This document shows positions 32,737 to 56,990 of a stretch of 64,000 bases of DNA, piece by piece. The stretch is from Litoditis marina. Lineage: Eukaryota > Nematoda > Chromadorea > Rhabditida > Rhabditidae. How positions within the stretch are numbered: the stretch's first letter is position 1; each line of letters opens with the position of its first letter. The translations under genes and the position numbers were made by a program. The notes beneath the pieces were generated by a model that was not told the origin of the DNA, did not search any database, and was given only the letters and a program-made list of their open reading frames with translations. Location: positions 37,285,279 through 37,349,278 of the forward strand of contig OZ038434.1 of NCBI GenBank assembly GCA_964036275.1, read 5' to 3'.

Positions 32737-33068
32737 TCAACAGTCATCCGAGAAAATAAGTGTTTTCTCGGAACTGTTTCTACCACCATGTGATAACTCT
32801 ATATCAACGTATTCATTTTCTTTAATCAAATGACTAATATGGTCAACCAACTTTTTGATTGTCATGTCTTCCTTATCTCTAAACTCTAGTCTGGATAGTT
32901 CACGCTGGAACTTAATGGGAAAAGAAGACTTCAACAATCTCAAAACCGAGAGACTGGATGTGTCCTCATCAGCTCGATCCATGGCTGCTATAATGGCCAT
33001 TACATCACTCAGGGTGTTTCTCAAACTGGACGCGTCATTAGTAGCGCGCGGGAGAGACTCCAGCTGTT
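32737..33068 (-). pseudogene. BEL/Pao-type gag, downstream part
   Basis: This minus-strand frame continues the gag begun at 42 kb, resuming with LESLPRATNDASSLRN directly after the 3' end of PLE1 at about 33069. The -LP-a-n---LR-L-d---- pattern following the gag domain is typical of BEL/Pao gag proteins. The frame stops at 32737 and no zinc knuckle, protease or polymerase follows, so the element is defective. Confidence 0.65.
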
Positions 33069-33287
33069 CATTAAATTATAAGAAAACTAGGAAGTTGAAA
33101 CTACTATACAAAACCACGTTGCTCGTGTAAACAAGCTCAACTAACAGGTGATATCAGGCTACTTTAGTAATTTATAAAAGAAAAAAAGTCCAAAGGAGAG
33201 AGGAATGAAAGAGGGAAGAGAGTGAGAGATAAATTTATTTGCACTGTGCAAATTCCTAGATTGTCTATTACAAACATTAGTTACCTT

Positions 33288-33351
33288 GACATTTCGGGCA
33301 ATTACCGATCCATATGTCAAACAGGATGCCCTCATCAGTAGATGACCTGTT
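33288..33351 (-). ncRNA. Permuted hammerhead-like ribozyme, PLE1 main copy
   Basis: Minus strand, 5' to 3': AACAGG (33351-33346), ATCTA (helix I 3' strand), CTGATGA (33338-33332), GGGCA (helix II), CCTGTT closing the extra helix with AACAGG, GACA (helix III), TA, TGGAT (helix I 5' strand, pairs ATCTA with one G-U), then TGCCC (helix II), GAAA (33295-33292), TGTC (helix III). Predicted cleavage after position 33313. It lies about 170 nt after the RT stop codon. Activity is inferred from the core only. Confidence 0.6.
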
Positions 33352-33520
33352 ATAGTTAACCTAGTGAGATTATTTCAAGAAATTGAGTTAGAAGATGTAA
33401 AAAGAGTCCATTTACACTTACACAAGAGCAGAATGATGACCAGTGAGTCAGCTGAGTGCAAGAGGAGGGTCAGAAAATGGACAGACAATTATTGATCGAA
33501 CTGTTCGCTGGATCAAAAGT

Positions 33521-35869
33521 TCACGTCACTGCATCTAATAATCTAGTAAACAATTGCAAGTCAATTGCATACTTACTTGTAATAAATGGTTTATCAGCAA
33601 TTACTTTATAGAAGCGTCTAAGAATCAACATTTTAGGCCAACCATTTTTAAAATAAAAACTAGCAAGCTGTTTTGCTCTTGCTAAGAAATCTTCATAGTC
33701 TGAACAAGCACGTGTTATTCGTATTATTTCGCCAGTAATTGTATTCAAACCAATTCTACTATCGATATTCGAAAAGTAGTTTGGATATCTTATAACGTCA
33801 AACTTGAAGAGATCAGTTTTATTAAATAGAGATACTTTAATCTGGGGAATTGTCACAGTGATATCCAAATCGAGAAACTCGCAATTTGTTTTCAAATCCG
33901 CTGTTGCTTCTAAACTCAATGAAGAGTCATAGATTTGAGCTAAATCTGCTTTGAAATTATCGGATACATCGGAAATATGTAACAGATCATCGATATATCG
34001 ATATGTATAATTGTACTTTCGTGCGAAATGTTGCCCTCGTGTTTCTAAAACTGATTTGATAAACTTGTACTCCATGTAGCTAAGAGTCAGGTCGGCTATT
34101 TGTGGTGAGCAGCTGGCACCTTGTGGAATACCACATCTTTGTCTATAAACCTTGTTACCGTATACAGCAACACTATTTTCTAGAAGTGACTCAAGTAAAT
34201 AACAAACTTCTTGAAAAGTGAAAAATGAACCAGTACCATTATTAGATACGCTGTAACTACAATGGTTACCTTGTACACGTATATAGTTTTGATTTTTGAA
34301 ACAAACACTAAGGAGCTGAAACATATTCAGCTTTATCACGCTATGTGGTAAATTAGTAAATAAACTAGCGAAATCAGCAGAATAAATACGTGTACTATTA
34401 CTGGTACGCAAGGGAGTCACGTCATCCACCACTCGTGAACTGTTGTTTACAGCCCAGTAGTGACGAACTCCGGTTCTCTCGTGTATAACATTGCAATAGT
34501 TAATAAAATGTTTTTGTACATGAGCCAAAATTACTTGCAAATTGGTGCAAAGAGGTTTCAACGGACTAGTTTTAGCACCAGTAATGAAACGAAACTTCAT
34601 GATAGCTTTATGCATTTTTGGTATACCATACATCTTAGGAATTGAAGGGTCTTGCACTTTTTTGAAGTTCAAGCCTTCAATAAACTTAGAATGTTTAATG
34701 ATTACATCATCAACAGTATGATTGGAAACTTCATAAGTGGAAAACTGCGAAACACTGCTTCTTTCAATTTCTACATTCATCATTCGTACGTATAACTTTT
34801 TACAAGTAAATGCATAGTTAGTCGCTGCTTTATCGACACAAGTTATAATGAAATGCTCTTGTAACTTTGTGATATCATTCAAATCACGAGTATTCAAAAT
34901 ATAAGAATTGTCCAAATCAGGATCAAGAGTATGCAATCGGTTAGATACCGTATTACAAACATTTTGCATTAGAATATCTTGGAACGTATCTACAACCTGT
35001 TTGTTAGGTTTATAGCATTTACGAACTGTTCCAATAACTGATTGAACCGCTTTTTGACAAGCTTGAATAATCGATGCTGAGTCTGGTGGTTCTTGACACC
35101 TGAATTTCGTACCACATGTTAGCAAATTGCGTAAATGTGAATTTTTGATGAAAGTTAGATCACCGGTACAGATGTGACCGTGATTAGGATCAATATAAGC
35201 AGAAAACTTGTCACAGATACATTTATAACTGTCAGAAACCAGATAATCAATATGATTGCGATCCAACCTTTTGAGGAACGTGTTATAATTGAACACCTTA
35301 AGTGATAATGGAGGATTGTACGTGAAGATCACCCGAATTTTTGGATTAGGCATTCCACTGATTTCAGAAAGATAGTTGTGAACAACACCCTTATTGAAAA
35401 GGCTAGGTAAATGAAGATGCTCCATACTTTTAGACATGAAAGGAATAGTGACACTAGCAACAATAGTATCTTGAGACTTAGTTCGTTTCGTTTTCCAGTA
35501 ATGATTGCAGATACAAGTATAAAGTTTGTACCTGAATTCAAATTTTTTGGAAAGAAATTCACCTGCAAAAGCATACTGGAGGAGCAAATCTTTCTCATGT
35601 TTAGAGAGAGTTCTTGAAAACAGATAAAGTTCTCTATCTTGCATGATCTGAACACTATTCAACAACTGATCAATATCTCTTTGAGGAGATCTAGAAGTTT
35701 TAGATCGTCGCTTCTTTCCATGACTTTTACGATGTGTTGGAAAAGGCATGACAAAAAAGGGATGGTCAGGTTTAATAAGTGGATTAGGAGTGTTGGAAAT
35801 GTTTCCAAAACCTTTAATTTGATCATTGAAACCAAATGGATAACTTGATGAAAGGATTTTAATCCACAT
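33521..35869 (-). CDS. PLE1 reverse transcriptase (C-terminal main part of the polyprotein)
   Basis: 782 codons. The first residues (WIKILSSSYPFGFND) are the usual end of a Penelope GIY-YIG domain, showing that this frame was once continuous with the endonuclease frame at 38582-38076. A basic region (KKRRSKTSRS) follows. The segment HGHICTGDL...LLTCGTKF (about 230-255) precedes the RT. RT motifs: A, SADFASLFTNLP (about 498-508); B, GIPQGASCSPQIADL (about 580-594); C, YRYIDDLL (about 623-630); then EFLDLDITV and the thumb. The catalytic Asp residues are present. RT would copy the element RNA at a nicked target. The frame is uninterrupted; separation from its endonuclease by PLE2 is the defect. 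Confidence 0.85.
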   Translation of the reverse strand: MWIKILSSSYPFGFNDQIKGFGNISNTPNPLIKPDHPFFVMPFPTHRKSHGKKRRSKTSRSPQRDIDQLLNSVQIMQDRELYLFSRTLSKHEKDLLLQYAFAGEFLSKKFEFRYKLYTCICNHYWKTKRTKSQDTIVASVTIPFMSKSMEHLHLPSLFNKGVVHNYLSEISGMPNPKIRVIFTYNPPLSLKVFNYNTFLKRLDRNHIDYLVSDSYKCICDKFSAYIDPNHGHICTGDLTFIKNSHLRNLLTCGTKFRCQEPPDSASIIQACQKAVQSVIGTVRKCYKPNKQVVDTFQDILMQNVCNTVSNRLHTLDPDLDNSYILNTRDLNDITKLQEHFIITCVDKAATNYAFTCKKLYVRMMNVEIERSSVSQFSTYEVSNHTVDDVIIKHSKFIEGLNFKKVQDPSIPKMYGIPKMHKAIMKFRFITGAKTSPLKPLCTNLQVILAHVQKHFINYCNVIHERTGVRHYWAVNNSSRVVDDVTPLRTSNSTRIYSADFASLFTNLPHSVIKLNMFQLLSVCFKNQNYIRVQGNHCSYSVSNNGTGSFFTFQEVCYLLESLLENSVAVYGNKVYRQRCGIPQGASCSPQIADLTLSYMEYKFIKSVLETRGQHFARKYNYTYRYIDDLLHISDVSDNFKADLAQIYDSSLSLEATADLKTNCEFLDLDITVTIPQIKVSLFNKTDLFKFDVIRYPNYFSNIDSRIGLNTITGEIIRITRACSDYEDFLARAKQLASFYFKNGWPKMLILRRFYKVIADKPFITSKYAIDLQLFTRLLDAVT

Positions 35870-35925
35870 TTTAGATTATCACTGGTGATCCAGAACTATT
35901 TAAAAATACTCCAATATTCGAACTC

Positions 35926-37539
35926 TTGAATAAAGGAACAAAATTCAGACTCCCTAACCATATAGATATTAGTACTATTGAAGATACTCTGATAAATCAA
36001 TGTCTCACACTTGTACATAAAGTTAATGATAAAACTAAAGCTAATGAACCTCAAATACCTGGTGAAATGATAACCACATTACATAACAAACTCATTGAGA
36101 TAATAAAAACTAAAACTAAATTAAATCAACATCAGAAAGAATCACAATATTGGAATAATCAATTGAATAAAATACATGAACAATTTATCATTACAGTTAC
36201 AGATAAAGCAACATCTAATTACTCATTCACATGCAAAAAATTATATGTAAAACTACTCAATGAAGAAATGGGATATCTTAACAATTCACTTAATAATAAA
36301 ACATTTACCAAATACTTCTTAGAAAAGGAAACAGATATTATAGATAGACATACAAGTACTAACACTAACTGGAGATTGAAAAACAACACCCTCACCCAAA
36401 TTCCTAAAATTTATGGAATACCTAAATTACATAAATACCCCATTAAATGTAGATTTATAACTGGTGCTAAAACAAGCAGTTTAAGGGAAATGTCTATACA
36501 ATTTCAAAAAATTTTAAAACACATCAAACAACATTTCCGTAGATACTGTAATGTGATTGAAAATCGTAATAATATCAAACTATTTTGGTCTATAGATAGT
36601 AGCCTACATATCATTAATGATATAAGAGACATGCAAATTAATACACATAAATTATATACTGCTGATTTTTCTAGTCTATTCACTAGCCTCCCCCATAAAA
36701 TTGTAAAAGAAGAACTATCTTTTATTATTGATCTCTGCTTTAAAAATACCAATTCAGGTAAATCTTATATTGTTATAAATAATAATAAATCATACTATAG
36801 TAATGAAATGGCAAACCAAAAAGCTGCTCGTAGCTACACTAAAAATGATATCAAATTGATGCTCAACTATATACTTAATAATAGTTTTACTAAATACGGT
36901 AATCAGATTTATAAACAAGTTGCCGGTATACCCCAAGGTAATAATGCCTCCCCCTTAATTGCTGATCTGACACTCTGTGCTATGGAATATAAATATGCAA
37001 TTAAACATCAACAGAAATTTAAAACTTATAATAATAGAACTTACAGATATATGGACGACCTCTTACAAATTTATAAGCCCAGAGATGAATATGATATAAC
37101 ATCTACATTTAAAGAAATATATGATGAAGCTCTAAATTTAGAACGCACTAATACCACTGATAATGAAGCAAACTTTCTAGATATTACCATAAAAACTGAC
37201 AAAGTAAATAAAGAGATAGTTACTAGATTATATAACAAGACGGATGACTATAACTTCAGAATTAGAAGATACCCACATTTCAATTCCAACATCCCTACCA
37301 GCCTAGGTCTCAACACTGTTAAAGGAGAAGTCATTCGCTTTAGCAGATGCTGTAGTAAATTCGCAGACTTCAAAAATAGAATAGAAGCACTTATTAGAGA
37401 TTTTAAAATCAACGAATTTCCAACCATCATAATTTGTAACCGAATTATAAGAGTAATCAACGCAAGTCATATAATATGTAATAAGTATGACAAAAATAAA
37501 CTATCCAACTTCATGTCAGTAATTAAAAACTATACTTGA
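35926..37539 (+). CDS. PLE2 reverse transcriptase, 5'-truncated
   Basis: 537 codons from the first ATG; the same frame is open a little further upstream to about 35888. Motifs: A, TADFSSLFTSLP (about 245-256); B, AGIPQGNNASPLIADLTL (about 333-350); C, YRYMDDLL (about 373-380), followed by NFLDITIKT and the thumb KGEVIRFSRCC. RT motifs are complete and uninterrupted, but there is no GIY-YIG region. About half the residues in the conserved blocks match PLE1. Lys-, Asn- and Ile-rich composition reflects AT-rich codons. Confidence 0.85.
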   Translation: MNKGTKFRLPNHIDISTIEDTLINQCLTLVHKVNDKTKANEPQIPGEMITTLHNKLIEIIKTKTKLNQHQKESQYWNNQLNKIHEQFIITVTDKATSNYSFTCKKLYVKLLNEEMGYLNNSLNNKTFTKYFLEKETDIIDRHTSTNTNWRLKNNTLTQIPKIYGIPKLHKYPIKCRFITGAKTSSLREMSIQFQKILKHIKQHFRRYCNVIENRNNIKLFWSIDSSLHIINDIRDMQINTHKLYTADFSSLFTSLPHKIVKEELSFIIDLCFKNTNSGKSYIVINNNKSYYSNEMANQKAARSYTKNDIKLMLNYILNNSFTKYGNQIYKQVAGIPQGNNASPLIADLTLCAMEYKYAIKHQQKFKTYNNRTYRYMDDLLQIYKPRDEYDITSTFKEIYDEALNLERTNTTDNEANFLDITIKTDKVNKEIVTRLYNKTDDYNFRIRRYPHFNSNIPTSLGLNTVKGEVIRFSRCCSKFADFKNRIEALIRDFKINEFPTIIICNRIIRVINASHIICNKYDKNKLSNFMSVIKNYT

Positions 37540-37875
37540 TAATAGAAAATAAGATCCCCCATATAATAACATTATTTCCATGGTAGAATGCGTTTTTATC
37601 TTGCCATACGCTTGCTACGGTAAAACAATAATAGATCAAATCTTCTCCACTTGGCGGGAAATAATAATGATAACACTATATAAGAGGACACCTCTCCGAT
37701 CCATATCACTCAACACACTATATTATAGCCAGTACTATCGTCAGTATGCTACACAGATACAAGGTAATTTTTCATATTTGTAAGTAGATACTTTTGATTC
37801 TTAGTTAAAAATATATAGAATTTTGCAAATAACTTGAAAAAGGAAAATTTTAGTTAGTTAATTCTTTATATATCC

Positions 37876-37952
37876 GGTCAGCGGCTTATCTCCTGATGAG
37901 GCCTCGACCGCTGACCAAAGACATCGTAGAGGACCAGAGGCCGAAACGATGT
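37876..37952 (+). ncRNA. Permuted hammerhead-like ribozyme, PLE2
   Basis: 5' to 3': GGTCAGCGG (37876-37884), TCTC (helix I), CTGATGA (37893-37899), GGCCTC (helix II), CCGCTGACC (37908-37916, pairs GGTCAGCGG), ACATCG (helix III, 37921-37926), TA, GAGG (helix I, 37929-37932), GAGGCC (helix II, 37937-37942), GAAA (37943-37946), CGATGT (helix III). The hammerhead invariants CUGAUGA, GAAA and NUH are present. Predicted cleavage after A37928. Located 340 nt beyond the RT stop. Confidence 0.65.
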
Positions 37953-38075
37953 ATTACTTAGTAATCTTTTTATTAATATTATAGATAGTATTATTCTAAC
38001 CATAATACTCATTTATACTCATTTATTCTCATGTATAACATTTCAAGTCATCTTATCTTATACTTTATACTTATT

Positions 38076-38582
38076 TTATATAATCTCTTTATCGTGTAAA
38101 TGTATCTTAGTTTGTTTATCAAAAGCACCCTGAACTGAATCGAGAATGTCAATCGATATGTTATTTGGGTTGTGACCGCTTTCGAAAAAGTGGCTGGAAA
38201 GATAAGTGTTTATGGATTTCTTAGTGAAAGAATACAAATGTTGACTAATACGACCTCTGAGTTTCTGTTTGGTTTCGCCCACGTATTGGTATTTACACGT
38301 GTTACACGTAATACAATAAATCACATTTTTAGTCTCACAGTTGGCTTGGCTCGGTTTATTTGTAACAATGAAATTCTGAGTTGTGGTACATAGTACCCTG
38401 GAGCTAAAGTTCATAATTTTACAAATACGGCAATTACCCCTATGACACCTACTACCTTTTTGATCTGAGAAATGGGAGGGTGTGACTAAGTAGTTTCTAT
38501 CGCATTTTTCAACGTAACTATACCAAGTAGATTGAACTGCGTTACTGTTTGTGTTCGGGGTGGTAGTAGGCTCTGACTCCAT
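38076..38582 (-). CDS. PLE1 GIY-YIG endonuclease (N-terminal part of the polyprotein)
   Basis: 168 codons. An in-frame TAG five codons before the ATG supports this start. A Cys-rich stretch, CHRGNCRIC (about 46-54), is followed by NVIYCITCNTC then YQYVGETKQKLRGRISQH, the GIY-YIG core with its second Tyr-Val-Gly and the conserved Arg residues and His. The frame ends in HDKEII at the PLE2 junction, where the next residues of the domain (WIK...PFGFND) lie across the insertion at 35869. The enzyme would nick target DNA for priming. An endonuclease upstream of RT is the permuted order reported for Naiad/Chlamys-type Penelope-like elements. Confidence 0.85.
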   Translation of the reverse strand: MESEPTTTPNTNSNAVQSTWYSYVEKCDRNYLVTPSHFSDQKGSRCHRGNCRICKIMNFSSRVLCTTTQNFIVTNKPSQANCETKNVIYCITCNTCKYQYVGETKQKLRGRISQHLYSFTKKSINTYLSSHFFESGHNPNNISIDILDSVQGAFDKQTKIHLHDKEII

Positions 38583-38599
38583 GAGGACGCTGGCCTAGA

Positions 38600-40211
38600 C
38601 ATCCTCAATTGTGTGAGTTGTTATGAGAAACGTTTTTGTTTCTCCGGTACGGGCACCGATCAGTATCAGAGAGCACTACTAGTAGACAACTACACGTGGA
38701 ACGGGGTTGCCCGCCTACATAGCACGATCTCTCACAGTAATGAAAAGTTCAACGTGGAATTCCATCAGTAACATTACTAAGTAACTACTAAGGAAACATG
38801 TGATAGGGAAATGAAGGATATAAAATTAATGTTAAGTAAATCCACTGGACAGTAGTTTAGAACTTTGACACTTAAACTATAAAAAGCAGGGTTGATAAAA
38901 ACATATATTGCATTTATATGTCCTACAATATAGATTATAGAAACGGGAGAAATTAAAGAGGAGCTAGGAAATTATAGTATTAAGATACACTCCAGAAGCT
39001 GAGAAACATACAATAACGTATAATGTGTTAAGGGATCCAAGTATGAATTAGAATTACACAAATAGAAATATGTTGATATGTTATTTTACGTAATACAATT
39101 TGTTTAAGAAACTTGGGGCAAACGAGGAGGGGGTATGCAAAATAGGCGTATATTAAGGTAGTAGGAGTATTCATTTATAACCAATAACCGAACCAATGAG
39201 ACCATGTTTATTAAACGAATGTTACATGTGTTACAGTTTGTATGTGATCTTAGTCCCATTAGTCGAGACACCGAAGTGTCCTCCCAAACTGTAACACAAT
39301 TGAACGAATATATTAGAACGTATAAGTGAAATAGTAAGAAACTTAATGATAAAATAGTACCATAGATGTATAGGAACTTAGTCCTATTAGACGAGTAAAC
39401 ATAGAAGAACTCCCGCGACTCATAAGAGACGCGTATAGGCTCTTAGGCCCATTAATCGAGATCAAACTACATTTACTCCCATCAGATACTACATGAGAAA
39501 TTATGATAGAGAATGAATCACTCAATATTGTGTGATTGGTAATTTTACAATTGACGTGAGCTCTACAAAATGGAGACGATAGCGGGTGTATTTGTCCAAA
39601 ACTTACAAAAGCCGATAAATAAAACACTGGGTTGATTTTAATTAATGAATATTACATGTGTTACAGTTTGTATGCGATCTTAGTCCCATTAGTCGAGACA
39701 CCGAAGTGTCCTCCCAAACTGTAACACAATTGAACGAATATATTAGAATGTATAAGTGAAATAGTAAGAAACTTAATGATAAAATAGTACCATAGATGTA
39801 TAGGAACTTAGTCCTATTAGACGAGTAAACATAGAAGAACTCCCGCGACTCATAAGAGACGCGTATAGGCTCTTAGGCCCATTAATCGAGATCAAACTAC
39901 ATTTACTCCCATCAGATACTACATGAGAAACTATATAAGAAAATTAACCACTTAGTACTGGGTAGTTATTAAGTCAATACAATAGTAAGACAGAACCACG
40001 ACAATCAAGTTTCAATTAGATAAGGTGTAGCCCTAATACTTACTGAATATAATAAATTAGATAATTTAGTTCATGATGTTGAAAAGGCGATAGAAAGGGA
40101 TTAGCCAAATAGAACTAAGGAAAAGAAAATAAATAGGTAAACGGATGAGTTTCTAAGTTTAACGGCGAGTGAGTGTGAACTACACAATCAGCACGTATAC
40201 TTAGACAAAAC
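38600..40211 (-). repeat. PLE1 leader with two ~285-bp direct repeats
   Basis: 39216-39500 and 39646-39930 are near-identical with a period of 430 bp. Each contains GTTACAGTTTG and, about 50 bases later, CAAACTGTAAC (a hairpin), enclosing a smaller hairpin GACAC-CGAA-GTGTC. No reading frame is shared by both. The position, 5' of the endonuclease start, suggests a transcribed leader or promoter region. Confidence 0.65.
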
Positions 40212-40428
40212 ATTAAATTATAAGAAAACTAGGAAGTTGAAACTACTATACAAAACCACGTTGCTCGTGTAAACAAGCTCAACTAACAGGTGATATCAGG
40301 CTACTTTAGTAATTTATAAAAGAAAAAAGTCCAAAGGAGAGAGGAATGAAAGAGGGAAGAGAGTGAGAGATAAATTTATTTGCACTGTGCAAATTCCTAG
40401 ATTGTCTATTACAAACATTAGTTACCTT

Positions 40429-40492
40429 GACATTTCGGGCAATTACCGATCCATATGTCAAACAGGATGCCCTCATCAGTAGATGACCTGTT
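40429..40492 (-). ncRNA. Permuted hammerhead-like ribozyme, PLE1 truncated copy
   Basis: Second copy of the motif at 33288-33351, offset by 7141 bp; the ribozyme-core bases look identical. It lies in the upstream pseudo-LTR, as expected if ribozymes define both ends of the element's RNA. Confidence 0.6.
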
Positions 40493-40661
40493 ATAGTTAA
40501 CCTAGTGAGATTATTTCAAGAAATTGAGTTAGAAGATGTAAAAAGAGTCCATTTACACTTACACAAGAGCAGAATGATGACCAGTGAGTCAGCTGAGTGC
40601 AAGAGGAGGGTCAGAAAATGGACAGACAATTATTGATCGAACTGTTCGCTGGATCAAAAGT

Positions 40662-42050
40662 TCACGTCACTGCATCTAATAATCTAGTAAACAATTGCAA
40701 GTCAATTGCATACTTACTTGTAATAAATGGTTTATCAGCAATTACTTTATAGAAGCGTCTAAGAATCAACATTTTAGGCCAACCATTTTTAAAATAAAAA
40801 CTAGCAAGCTGTTTTGCTCTTGCTAAGAAATCTTCATAGTCTGAACAAGCACGTGTTATTCGTATTATTTCGCCAGTAATTGTATTCAAACCAATTCTAC
40901 TATCGATATTCGAAAAGTAGTTTGGATATCTTATAACGTCAAACTTGAAGAGATCAGTTTTATTAAATAGAGATACTTTAATCTGGGGAATTGTCACAGT
41001 GATATCCAAATCGAGAAACTCGCAATTTGTTTTCAAATCCGCTGTTGCTTCTAAACTCAATGAAGAGTCATAGATTTGAGCTAAATCTGCTTTGAAATTA
41101 TCGGATACATCGGAAATATGTAACAGATCATCGATATATCGATATGTATAATTGTACTTTCGTGCGAAATGTTGCCCTCGTGTTTCTAAAACTGATTTGA
41201 TAAACTTGTACTCCATGTAGCTAAGAGTCAGGTCGGCTATTTGTGGTGAGCAGCTGGCACCTTGTGGAATACCACATCTTTGTCTATAAACCTTGTTACC
41301 GTATACAGCAACACTATTTTCTAGAAGTGACTCAAGTAAATAACAAACTTCCTGAAAAGTGAAAAATGAACCAGTACCATTATTAGATACGCTGTAACTA
41401 CAATGGTTACCTTGTACACGTATATAGTTTTGATTTTTGAAACAAACACTAAGGAGCTGATAGAGGGCATACCGATAGCGCCTTTTGTCGGCATAGAGCC
41501 CTTGCAATATCTTAATTGCCGAAGGATTATCCGAACCTTTTCTGGGAACTCTTTTGAGCGCTCTAGCGGCATCTCCCTCACATGCTTCTAGGAGCATTGT
41601 TAGTTTTTCGATGTCCGCGTACTCTTTTTGATGCACTACTGCCGAAAACAGATCCCAGAACCCGTCCCATTCACTAATTTGACCATCAAATTCGGGAATT
41701 TTCATCTCTCTGTTCAAAGAGAGTTTGTTACACAGGCTGGCGAGCACTGACACCTCAGGCGCTATGTCTTCATCATCATCGTCGTCGTCGTCGTCGTCGA
41801 CTTCGTTGTCCAAACGAATGATAGATGTCTGAACACGAATTTCACGTGCCCTTTTTTCCAAAACTATCTTAGCGTCATTCGAAGAATTGATGATCTCATC
41901 AAACTTTTTGTCAACCAGATATTTCTCTAAATTATTCTTGGCTAACCCTCCCAGAGTAGCATCAAATGCCTTGATGTCCTCTACTTTGACGCTGACCTCT
42001 GCTAAGAAGTTTTCGACCGCTTCGATTTTCTTGTCTAGAGAGCGTGCCAA
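40662..42050 (-). pseudogene. Chimeric frame: BEL/Pao gag fused to the end of PLE1 RT
   Basis: The first ~196 residues are a BEL/Pao gag: coiled-coil-like N-terminus, an acidic run of nine Asp, then IPEFDGQISEWDGFWDLFSA and EKLTMLLEACEGDAARAL, the signature of the retrotransposon gag domain found in these elements. The frame then passes into PLE1 RT at QLLSVCFKNQ, including motifs B and C, and stops at 40662. The fusion is produced by insertion of the 5'-truncated PLE1 copy in frame. It lacks RT motif A and is not expected to work. Confidence 0.8.
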
Positions 42051-42260
42051 TTTCCAAGACTCGATCGTTCTCTGTTCAAAAGGTGCTTTATAGCATCTTC
42101 ATCTGTAGGAAAATCGAATTTCCTGTCATACGGCTCACATTCCGTAGTCAAAGCTTGTAGATCTTTTATAAGCTTCGTACCCTTAGTACGGGAGTACCTT
42201 AGTGTCGGATCTGGCCGAGCCATGCCACCTCTGGCTGAATCCGATACTCTCTCCTTATGT
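42051..42260 (-). pseudogene. Upstream part of BEL gag, in another frame
   Basis: The minus-strand frame above 42050 reads TKLIKDLQALTTECEPYDRK and DFPTDEDAIKHLL, plausible gag N-terminal sequence, but ends in a different phase from the gag frame at 42050. A frameshift near 42080 is likely. No LTR was identified upstream. Confidence 0.4.
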
Positions 42261-52816: not shown

Positions 52817-52921
<105 letters not shown>

Positions 52922-52924
52922 ATA

Positions 52925-53095
52925 CAAAATAAATTGTTGTTCATCACATAAACTCCTATTTATGGCTAACGGAATCCCCTGATGAGCCTTAACCGTTAGC
53001 CAGTGTAGTTTTGTAGGGACTTATAGGCGAAACAAACTACACATTGATTTATACATTACTTAATTTACAACATGTGTTCCACCATATTTCCTTCT
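52925..53095 (+). mobile_element. Orphan insert with ribozyme-like motif between CT tracts
   Basis: About 170 bp of non-repetitive sequence separates two CT tracts that are a single tract in the homologous copies (14.2, 25.04 and 61.2 kb), indicating insertion into the microsatellite. Apart from the motif at 52964-53042 it has no coding content. It may be a 3' end of a severely truncated Penelope-like element or a small non-autonomous retroelement. Confidence 0.55.
52964..53042 (+). ncRNA. Permuted hammerhead-like ribozyme, orphan copy
   Basis: 5' to 3': GGCTAACGG (52964-52972), TCCC (helix I), CTGATGA (52979-52985), GCCT (helix II), CCGTTAGCC (52993-53001, pairs the first element), GTGTAGTTTTG (helix III, one extra T), TA, GGGA (helix I, 53016-53019), AGGC (helix II), GAAA (53029-53032), CAAACTACAC (helix III). 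All helices are kept although the sequence differs from the copies at 37.9 and 33.3 kb. Predicted cleavage after A53015. Confidence 0.65.
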
Positions 53096-53096
53096 C

Positions 53097-53150
<54 letters not shown>

Positions 53151-53279
53151 CTCTCTCTCTCTTTCTCTCTCTCTCTATCTCTATTTGGTTGGGTTTTTGT
53201 GAGAAAATCTCGGAATGTGAACTCCAATCTCAAGCCTCTTCTCCATTAGATTTCTCTAGACGCCTGCTTCTGAACTGTC

Positions 53280-56619: not shown

Positions 56620-56990
56620 ATTAGTAAAAAGTGGGGGAACCAACAAATGTGTGAGTTGTGTTTGGTTTGACCTCGATATCAGCAAAAAGTGAACGATACG
56701 AATTGCTGTGATACTGTAGCAGAAGTATTCTGCAAAAATAGAACAATACAAATGTTGAACAATGGTTCACGGAGCCCGCATGATATTTCAGAAATTGCCG
56801 AATGGTATTTCATGTGTGCTTTGACGACATGCGTGCGTTGTGAACCATTGTGCAACATTTGTATTGTTCTATTTTTGCAGAATACTTCTGCTACAGTATC
56901 ACAGCAGTTCGTATCGTTCACTTTTTGCTGATATTGAGGTCGAACCAAACACAACTCACACATTTGTTGGTTCCCCCACTTTTTACTAAT
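56620..56990. repeat. Foldback inverted repeat, copy 2
   Basis: Arms 56620-56770 and 56840-56990 are reverse complements around a ~69-bp loop; outer ends as in copy 1. The middle of the arms differs from copy 1, yet both arms of each copy match each other, indicating arm homogenisation or independent amplification. Confidence 0.85.

What the first reader, a model, noticed from the sequence alone, without database searches (positions are those of the whole stretch)
37876..37952. Pseudoknotted, strand-permuted hammerhead ribozyme in a Penelope-like element
Seen: the hammerhead strands CTGATGA, GAAA and a TA cleavage dinucleotide all sit at correct helix junctions. Their order along the RNA is helix I-CTGATGA-helix II, then helix III-TA-helix I, then helix II-GAAA-helix III. 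This is not a circular permutation of the classic order and forces a pseudoknot. An extra nine-bp helix (GGTCAGCGG/CCGCTGACC) encloses the first strand. Established: Penelope-like elements are known to carry hammerheads, and I believe non-circular permutations of hammerheads have been described, but I cannot check that here. Inference: the RNA self-cleaves after 37928.
Basis: partly seen in the sequence, partly recalled or inferred. Interest (0 to 1): 0.92.

Follow-up and report, generated by a model that had tools for sequence, protein, structure and literature searches.

The report
Strand-permuted hammerhead ribozymes in Penelope retrotransposons
Several families of jumping genes in this large eukaryotic genome carry a predicted self-cutting RNA whose parts come in an order that makes it a knot, an arrangement published so far from only two sequences without a known owner, so this gives that rare RNA shape a carrier and natural variants to test.

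Summary
Confirmed. At 37876-37952 (+) the hammerhead core (CTGATGA, GAAA, TA) sits at correct junctions of helices I, II and III in the order CTGATGA-TA-GAAA, with a 9-bp helix (P) around the first strand. An order-neutral scan of the window finds four motifs, all in this order; 30 shuffles give none. The same scanner finds 42 classical-order motifs and no CSG in 2.19 Mb of viral contigs. Representatives of six families (A-F) in the genome keep the four innermost pairs of helices I-III while letters change on both sides. In families C, D and F tandem copies were read: the motif lies in direct repeats around a Penelope-like element with GIY-YIG before the reverse transcriptase, so cleavage would release unit-length RNA. 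This order is 'type CSG', published in 2023 from two metagenomic sequences that cleave in vitro (PMC10085705). Not a new kind; apparently new, within the open papers searched, as a multi-family set with a known genetic context. Cleavage is inferred. 'Nematode' is unverified, and there is no genome-wide census because the search machine mostly did not answer.

The parts
37876..37952 (+). Family A type-CSG hammerhead: P - I - CTGATGA - II - P' - III - TA - I' - II' - GAAA - III'
   Evidence: DNA-similar copies in the genome
37876..37916 (+). Hairpin 1: outer helix P (37876-37884 / 37908-37916) whose loop holds helix I 5' strand 37889-37892, core CTGATGA 37893-37899, helix II 5' strand 37900-37905
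   Evidence: P is in the minimum-energy fold; P pairs change on both sides at 4 of 9 positions across families
37921..37952 (+). Hairpin 2: helix III (37921-37926 / 37947-37952) whose loop holds TA 37927-37928, I' 37929-37932, II' 37937-37942, GAAA 37943-37946
37928..37929 (+). Predicted cleavage between A37928 and G37929 (inferred by analogy)
   Evidence: Inference; the analogous site is reported for CSG-1 and CSG-2 in PMC10085705
35870..38079 (+). Nested, 5'-truncated Penelope-like insertion (family A) that carries the motif near its 3' end; inserted into the minus-strand element
   Evidence: the uninterrupted relative L089 aligns up to window 38080 on one side and 35869 on the other, with a two-base overlap and nothing between
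35875..37539 (+). Reverse transcriptase reading frame of the family A element (554 codons, 5'-truncated)
   Evidence: (RVT_1 E 1e-4, 22.5 bits, below Pfam's cut-off of 29.6)
33286..33350 (-). Family D type-CSG hammerhead: P 33350-33346/33325-33321, I 33343-33339/33312-33308, CTGATGA 33338-33332, II 33331-33327/33300-33296, III 33320-33315/33291-33286, cut expected between 33313 and 33312
   Evidence: 40 of 40 scored matches in the genome (of 194 candidates) identical over 106 bases
40427..40491 (-). Second copy of the family D hammerhead, in the upstream direct repeat of the same element
33524..35875 (-). Reverse transcriptase part of the family D element
   Evidence: (26.2 bits, below Pfam's cut-off)
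38079..38594 (-). N-terminal GIY-YIG part of the same family D reading frame, split from the RT part by the family A insertion
   Evidence: (29 bits, above Pfam's cut-off); unsplit frame of 953 codons in L089
52964..53042 (+). Family E type-CSG hammerhead: P 52964-52972/52993-53001, I 52975-52978/53016-53019, CTGATGA 52979-52985, II 52986-52989/53025-53028, III 53003-53013/53033-53042 with one bulged T, cut expected after 53015
   Evidence: relatives

Best explanation
It is a type-CSG (non-circularly permuted) hammerhead ribozyme carried in the direct repeats ('pseudo-LTRs') of Penelope-like retrotransposons. The RNA forms two ordinary hairpins, P and III, joined by 0-5 nucleotides. Their loops then pair with each other through helices I and II, and this loop-loop pairing brings CUGAUGA, GAAA and the UA site together as a normal hammerhead core that cuts after UA. 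Because two copies lie one element length apart, cleavage at both would release a unit-length RNA that holds the whole GIY-YIG/RT frame, with (as for hammerheads in general) a 5'-hydroxyl and a 2',3'-cyclic phosphate. Shown here: order, core, helices, double-sided changes, many copies, element anatomy in three families. Inferred: the loop-loop fold, the cleavage, and its use in the element's life cycle.
For: Window scan: 4 of 4 motifs CSG, 0 in 30 shuffles. Positive control that the scanner is not biased to CSG: 42 distinct classical-order motifs (CGS 17, SCG 14, GSC 11), 1 weak SGC, 0 CSG in 240 viral loci, 2.19 Mb. 74 motifs in 72 of 88 own-genome loci, all CSG (these loci were chosen by DNA similarity to the window's motifs and a few overlap). 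One representative of each of families A-F: 24 of 24 standard pairs in the four innermost pairs of each of I, II and III; dealing partner strands among families reaches this in 4, 6 and 6 of 720 permutations; slid partners give 10-15, 3-12 and 3-8. Over 77 places (families A, B, C, E, F; 28 distinct haplotypes), double-sided changes occur at P3, P4, P6, P7, I1, I2, I4, I5, II2, II4, II5, III2, III4, III5; the whole core is intact in 72 of 77 counting one CTGAGGA. P and III are in the minimum-energy fold of 6 of 6 representatives. Element anatomy in L089, L090, L091. Two published RNAs of this order cleave at the predicted site (PMC10085705).
Against: No cleavage data. Helix I is short (4 pairs with one U-G in the window copy). 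Its second pair is non-standard in 17 of 77 places, 15 of them in family F (T-C or A-C), and its fifth pair in 14 of 77; all four inner pairs of helix I are standard in only 58 of 77. The third pair of helix III fails in 11 of 77. In one search a seventh representative, of the family F subgroup, has 3 of 4 helix I pairs; it was not in the permutation test. Permutation counts rest on six related families, so they are not strict probabilities; dropping families gives weaker counts (2 of 120, and 1 or 2 of 24). In the minimum-energy folds some letters of CTGATGA are paired, with upstream letters in A-D and among themselves in E and F, and would have to open. The family D fold is no more stable than shuffles (z -1.0). 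A related element (Poseidon of Anolis) needs protein for its hammerhead to cleave, and cleavage was not needed for insertion in vitro (PMC11167929, passages).
Confidence: 0.9

Rival explanations
1. A classical hammerhead (type III, or a decayed one) that only looks permuted: GUC of the P strand would be the cut site, and the S block a long loop of helix II.
For: Rfam Hammerhead_3 matches 3 of 12 own-genome loci given (all family B) at 24.1 bits (gathering score 48.5) and the window copy at 15.3 bits, treating the stretch with TA as a 27-28 base insertion.
Against: In both alignments two of the seven stem III pairs are lost and at least one stem I pair is non-standard. Family E gives no hammerhead match at E up to 10, and its P strand, like that of F, has no GTC. 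The reading leaves the P and III helices and their double-sided changes unexplained. All six families satisfy the CSG reading.
Confidence: 0.03
2. Two structured hairpins (P and III) with another role in the retrotransposon, such as protein binding or initiation of reverse transcription, whose loops resemble a hammerhead by descent from an active one; no cleavage today.
For: P and III alone are the predicted nested folds. Some copies have a broken core or helix I. In Anolis a structured RNA region serves initiation, and the hammerhead was dispensable in vitro (PMC11167929, passages).
Against: The core is intact in 72 of 77 places. Helices I and II, which such hairpins would not need, co-vary across families. 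Family D looks young (40 of 40 scored matches identical over 106 bases) and has a perfect core.
Confidence: 0.05
3. The active form is a dimer: C block of one RNA with S and G blocks of another, as reported for minimal type I hammerheads of Penelope-like elements. This is a variant of the best explanation, not exclusive of it.
For: Tandem copies supply two motifs per transcript; known minimal Penelope-like hammerheads may self-cleave through dimers (PMC7761336, passages).
Against: The monomer has P and III helices that tether the blocks; published CSG RNAs cleave during transcription of single motifs. Sequence cannot exclude dimers.
Confidence: 0.08
4. Chance assembly of short motifs.
For: Core motifs are short.
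Against: 0 in 30 shuffles against 4 in the window; conserved across copies and families.
Confidence: 0.005

Closest known systems
Type-CSG hammerhead ribozyme (Eckert, Friedrich, Weinberg and Weinberg, NAR 2023, PMC10085705; parts 1-6 of 8 read)
   Same: Same block order (CUGAUGA, cleavage site, GAAA), same conserved core, crossing helices I-III, and a helix that brings stems I and II together.
   Different: The paper has two similar sequences, found only in metagenomes, with modest covariation and no stated organism or element. Here: six families in one genome, 77 examined places plus family D, in repeats of Penelope-like elements where the element could be read. The published letters (supplement and figure) could not be compared.
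Type-SGC hammerhead (HRIMA-1 and variants, same paper)
   Same: Also non-circular; short I-II linker and a helix bridging I and II; 583 predicted sequences; validated cleavage.
   Different: Order S-G-C; from metatranscriptomes beside hairpin ribozymes, which the authors link to circular RNA agents.
Minimal type I hammerheads of Penelope-like elements and Terminons (Cervera and de la Pena 2014, Lunse 2017: not read; described in PMC7761336, passages)
   Same: Same kind of element and same location in pseudo-LTRs, in tandem.
   Different: Type I order (C-G-S), helix III minimal or absent, may act as dimers. Here order C-S-G, helix III of 6-10 pairs, extra helix P.
Penelope-like elements with GIY-YIG before the RT (Naiad/Chlamys-type; name recalled, paper not held)
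   Same: One reading frame with GIY-YIG first and RT second in family D; same order by similarity in C and F.
   Different: Clade membership was not tested by a tree.

Membership tests
Hammerhead ribozyme | C3-U-G-A-N-G-A9 between helices I and II | tested here: met
   Window 37893-37899; this strand intact in 73 of 77 places counting one CTGAGGA; the whole core in 72 of 77
Hammerhead ribozyme | GAAA between helices II and III, U16.1-H17 between III and I | tested here: met
   37943-37946 and 37927-37928; present in the representatives of A-F
Hammerhead ribozyme | Three helices meeting at the core | tested here: met
   24 of 24 inner pairs in each helix over six representatives; over 77 places all four inner pairs are standard in 58 (I), 73 (II) and 66 (III)
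Hammerhead ribozyme | Contact that brings helices I and II together | tested here: met
   Helix P: all nine pairs standard in 70 of 77 places, double-sided changes at 4 of 9 pairs; 5 pairs in family D. Its role as the I-II contact is inferred
Hammerhead ribozyme | Site-specific self-cleavage after H17 | not testable with these tools
   Needs a bench test
Type-CSG hammerhead | Block order C then S then G | tested here: met
   4 of 4 in the window; 74 of 74 in the chosen loci
Type-CSG hammerhead | Sequence homology with CSG-1 and CSG-2 | not tested
Minimal type I hammerhead of Penelope-like elements | Order C-G-S with a minimal helix III | tested here: not met
   The motifs here have order CSG and helix III of 6-10 pairs. 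No CGS motif in the window or the 88 loci at the thresholds used, which ask for at least 4 pairs in helix III and so would miss minimal type I motifs
Rfam hammerhead families | Reaches the curated gathering score | tested here: not met
   No hammerhead match to the window at E up to 5; 24.1 and 15.3 bits against 48.5 in short stretches. Control: in 5 viral loci with classical motifs 3 Hammerhead_II matches pass, others stay below
Penelope-like element | RT plus GIY-YIG in one frame, tandem or partial tandem copies with pseudo-LTRs | tested here: met
   in L089 the RT match is under Pfam's cut-off (25.9 of 29.6 bits), GIY-YIG above it (26.1 of 22.6). The frames of L090 and L091 are split, and in L090 Pfam finds only GIY-YIG; RT there rests on similarity
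Penelope-like element, N-terminal GIY-YIG clade | GIY-YIG before RT; placement in that clade by phylogeny | tested here: inconclusive
   Domain order met; no tree was built

The most novel reading that the evidence does not exclude
The CSG permutation is the standard hammerhead of a whole clade of Penelope-like elements whose protein domains are also in permuted order. It arose once, before RT lineages now only 36% identical split, and the metagenomic CSG-1 and CSG-2 come from such elements. The ribozyme is a loop-loop pair of hairpins with a built-in inactive fold that may delay cleavage until the element's protein binds.
Probability: 0.3. Interest if true: 0.85.

Novelty: new member of a known kind. 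Interest (0 to 1): 0.68.

Why it matters
Type CSG rested on two sequences without a stated host, and its authors wrote that support for its biological relevance is weaker than for type SGC (PMC10085705). Here it occurs in six families, with double-sided changes in all four helices, in elements of which one family (D) looks recently active. That gives it a carrier, a plausible job and natural variants. It makes three questions testable: how hammerheads change strand order in evolution, whether pseudoknots define ribozyme classes, and what hammerheads do for Penelope-like elements.

Tried and rejected
Rfam as a direct detector: no hammerhead in the window at E up to 5; weak type III matches to 3 of 12 loci and, in a short stretch, to the window copy, rejected as a classical reading because pairs are lost. 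Rfam Hammerhead_1 over the own genome: 0 matches, but the control also rang nowhere, so nothing follows. Structure model for a genome-wide search: alignments made, but MAFFT misplaced the P' strand, and family D; the search machine did not answer either, so no model was built. Host identity: no nematode SL1 leader and no run of TTAGGC, TTAGGG, TTAGG or TTAGGT in 108 loci and the window; one TTGCATTGCA in one locus, taken as chance; so little sequence says little. Of the proteins found, one has a label with an organism (a bacterial MAG), none. PDB: no sequence match to the family D protein. No tree, fold prediction or structure search was run. Rows dropped from counts: 81 to 77, L033 and L090 as double places; family D left out of the pair counts over places because its scored copies are identical; 3 of 40 places were not fetched. 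Loci without a scanner hit (16 of 88): L014, L018, L021, L035-L043, L045-L048; causes seen are a broken pair, a mutated core, truncation or decay, or the T-C pair in helix I of family F.

Full report
What is there. In a classical hammerhead, whatever its circular permutation, the three core strands come in the cyclic order CUGAUGA, GAAA, cleavage site. Here they come as CUGAUGA, cleavage site, GAAA. No circularisation of the RNA can turn one into the other. Helices I, II and III then all cross one another.

More than chance. I wrote a scanner that looks for CTGANGA, GAAA and T followed by A, C or T, with helices I (3 or more pairs), II and III (4 or more), in any of the six orders, on both strands. 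In the window it found four places, all of order CSG: families A (37889-37952 +), E (52975-53036 +) and D (33285-33343 and 40426-40484, both -). Thirty dinucleotide-preserving shuffles gave none. As a positive control it was run, with looser helix limits, on 240 viral-contig loci (2.19 Mb; chosen by patterns for CTGATGA and GAAA with a three-base helix II, whose spacing would also admit CSG motifs like these). It found 17 CGS, 14 SCG and 11 GSC motifs, one weak SGC and no CSG. The scanner therefore sees classical orders where they exist, provided helix III is not minimal. In 88 own-genome loci, chosen by DNA similarity to the window's motifs, it found 74 motifs, all CSG, in 72 loci. That set is biased by its choice and a few loci overlap; the window itself was not chosen by similarity.

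Families and covariation. DNA searches of the own genome each returned 40 scored matches (A: of 144 candidates; E: of 81; D: of 194), so copy numbers are lower bounds. By helix letters the matches form families A (one copy), B, C, D, E and F. For one representative of each, the four innermost pairs of I, II and III are all standard (24 of 24 per helix). Dealing the partner strands among the six families reaches this in 4, 6 and 6 of 720 permutations; sliding the partner by 1-3 bases gives at most 15, 12 and 8. Families are related, so these are not strict probabilities. Over 77 places of families A, B, C, E and F (40 of 40 places and 37 of 40; 28 distinct haplotypes), pairs with changes on both sides occur in all four helices: P3, P4, P6, P7; I1, I2, I4, I5; II2, II4, II5; III2, III4, III5. 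The whole core is intact in 72 of 77 (71 CTGATGA, one CTGAGGA). Against: the four inner pairs of helix I are all standard in only 58 of 77, mainly because of a T-C or A-C second pair in part of family F (15 of the 17 failures of that pair); the fifth pair of helix I fails in 14 of 77 and the third of helix III in 11 of 77. In all, 55 of 77 places have an intact core and twelve standard inner pairs.

Architecture. The minimum-energy fold of each of six representatives contains hairpins P and III. The crossing helices I and II would then pair the two loops with each other. So the ribozyme can be seen as two hairpins, joined by 0 (D), 1 (E, F) or 4-5 (A, B, C) bases, whose loops kiss to build the core; this is my inference, since the folding program does not model pseudoknots. 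In these folds some letters of CTGATGA are paired: in A-D its GAT region with letters just upstream (such as ATC), in E and F its ends with each other. That would be an inactive alternative which might act as a brake, or be noise. Five of the six folds are more stable than shuffles (z -3.1 to -5.4); family D is not (z -1.0).

The elements. The window holds a minus-strand partial-plus-full tandem of family D (41460-33068). Its 953-codon frame, seen unbroken in L089, has GIY-YIG first (residues 86-124) and RT second (725-813 for the Pfam match, which is below Pfam's cut-off). In the window it is cut by a 2.2-kb plus-strand insertion, 35870-38079, a 5'-truncated element of family A that carries the reported motif 127 bases before its 3' end. 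In L089 a 618-base direct repeat, 100% identical, flanks most of the frame, with one motif in each copy and cut sites 4929 bases apart; in L090 (family F) they are 4344 apart and in L091 (family C, other strand) 4246 apart. The frames of L090 and L091 are split into pieces; their domain order follows from Pfam (GIY-YIG in L090) and similarity to D and A. Cleavage at both motifs would release a unit-length RNA with the whole frame. All 40 scored family D matches are identical over 106 bases, which suggests recent activity. RT identity is 63-69% between A and C (two pieces), 46% between A and F and 36% between A and D, so the CSG motif spans distant lineages. By eye, no frame of 110 or more codons near the family E motif in the window resembles a Penelope RT; its relative F has one.

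What is known. Eckert et al. (NAR 2023, PMC10085705; parts 1-6 of 8 read) report the first natural non-circular hammerhead permutations and name the orders. Type CSG rests on two similar metagenomic sequences that cleave at the expected site at 0.004 and 0.026 per minute. [quoted passage not shown] Penelope-like elements were known to carry minimal type I hammerheads in tandem (PMC7761336, passages). In Anolis such a hammerhead needs protein to cleave and is not needed for insertion in vitro (PMC11167929, passages). Eight searches of the open library listed no title or abstract that reports a CSG hammerhead in a Penelope-like element or in a eukaryote, and the phrase 'type-CSG hammerhead' occurs in one paper only. 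Of the listed papers I opened three. Subscription papers and preprints are not held.

What could not be done. The machine for whole-genome searches answered four requests and not the others, so there is no census, no valid test for classical hammerheads elsewhere in this genome and no host name. 'Nematode' stays unverified. The published CSG letters could not be compared.

Verdict. It is a new set of members of a known but barely sampled class, in a context that gives the class a carrier.

Noticed in passing
window 35870-38079 inside 33068-41460: A plus-strand Penelope-like copy (family A) is nested in a minus-strand one (family D); the uninterrupted relative L089 shows the empty site.
   Followed up: yes
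L089 43-212 and 5756-5925: A 170-base flanking repeat (97% identical) directly abuts both ends of a partial-plus-full tandem of the family D element; either a very long target-site duplication or insertion into a tandem repeat.
   Followed up: no
window 39207-39522 and 39637-39952; L089 1088-1403 and 1518-1833: Tandem direct repeats of about 317 bases, 430 apart, in the 5' region of the family D element.
   Followed up: no
window 37885-37900 and the same place in families B, C, D: Letters upstream of the core pair with part of CTGATGA in the predicted minimum-energy folds: a possible inactive form of the ribozyme.
   Followed up: partly
window 56668-56942: Long inverted repeat that scores as a plant microRNA precursor (MIR8562, 96 bits, below its gathering score of 211); more likely a palindromic mobile element.
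   Followed up: no
window about 52819-52921 and 53100-53180: Long CT-rich microsatellite tracts flank the family E motif on both sides.
   Followed up: no
window 40665-42098 (-): Open frame that joins a DUF1759 stretch (Pao/BEL-like by recall) to the C-terminal part of the family D RT: the truncated upstream copy sits in another repeat.
   Followed up: no
P0006 against L090: A 666-residue protein from an ENA contig is 99% identical to the family F frame over 81% of it, so DNA of this or a very close organism may lie in another public sample.
   Followed up: no
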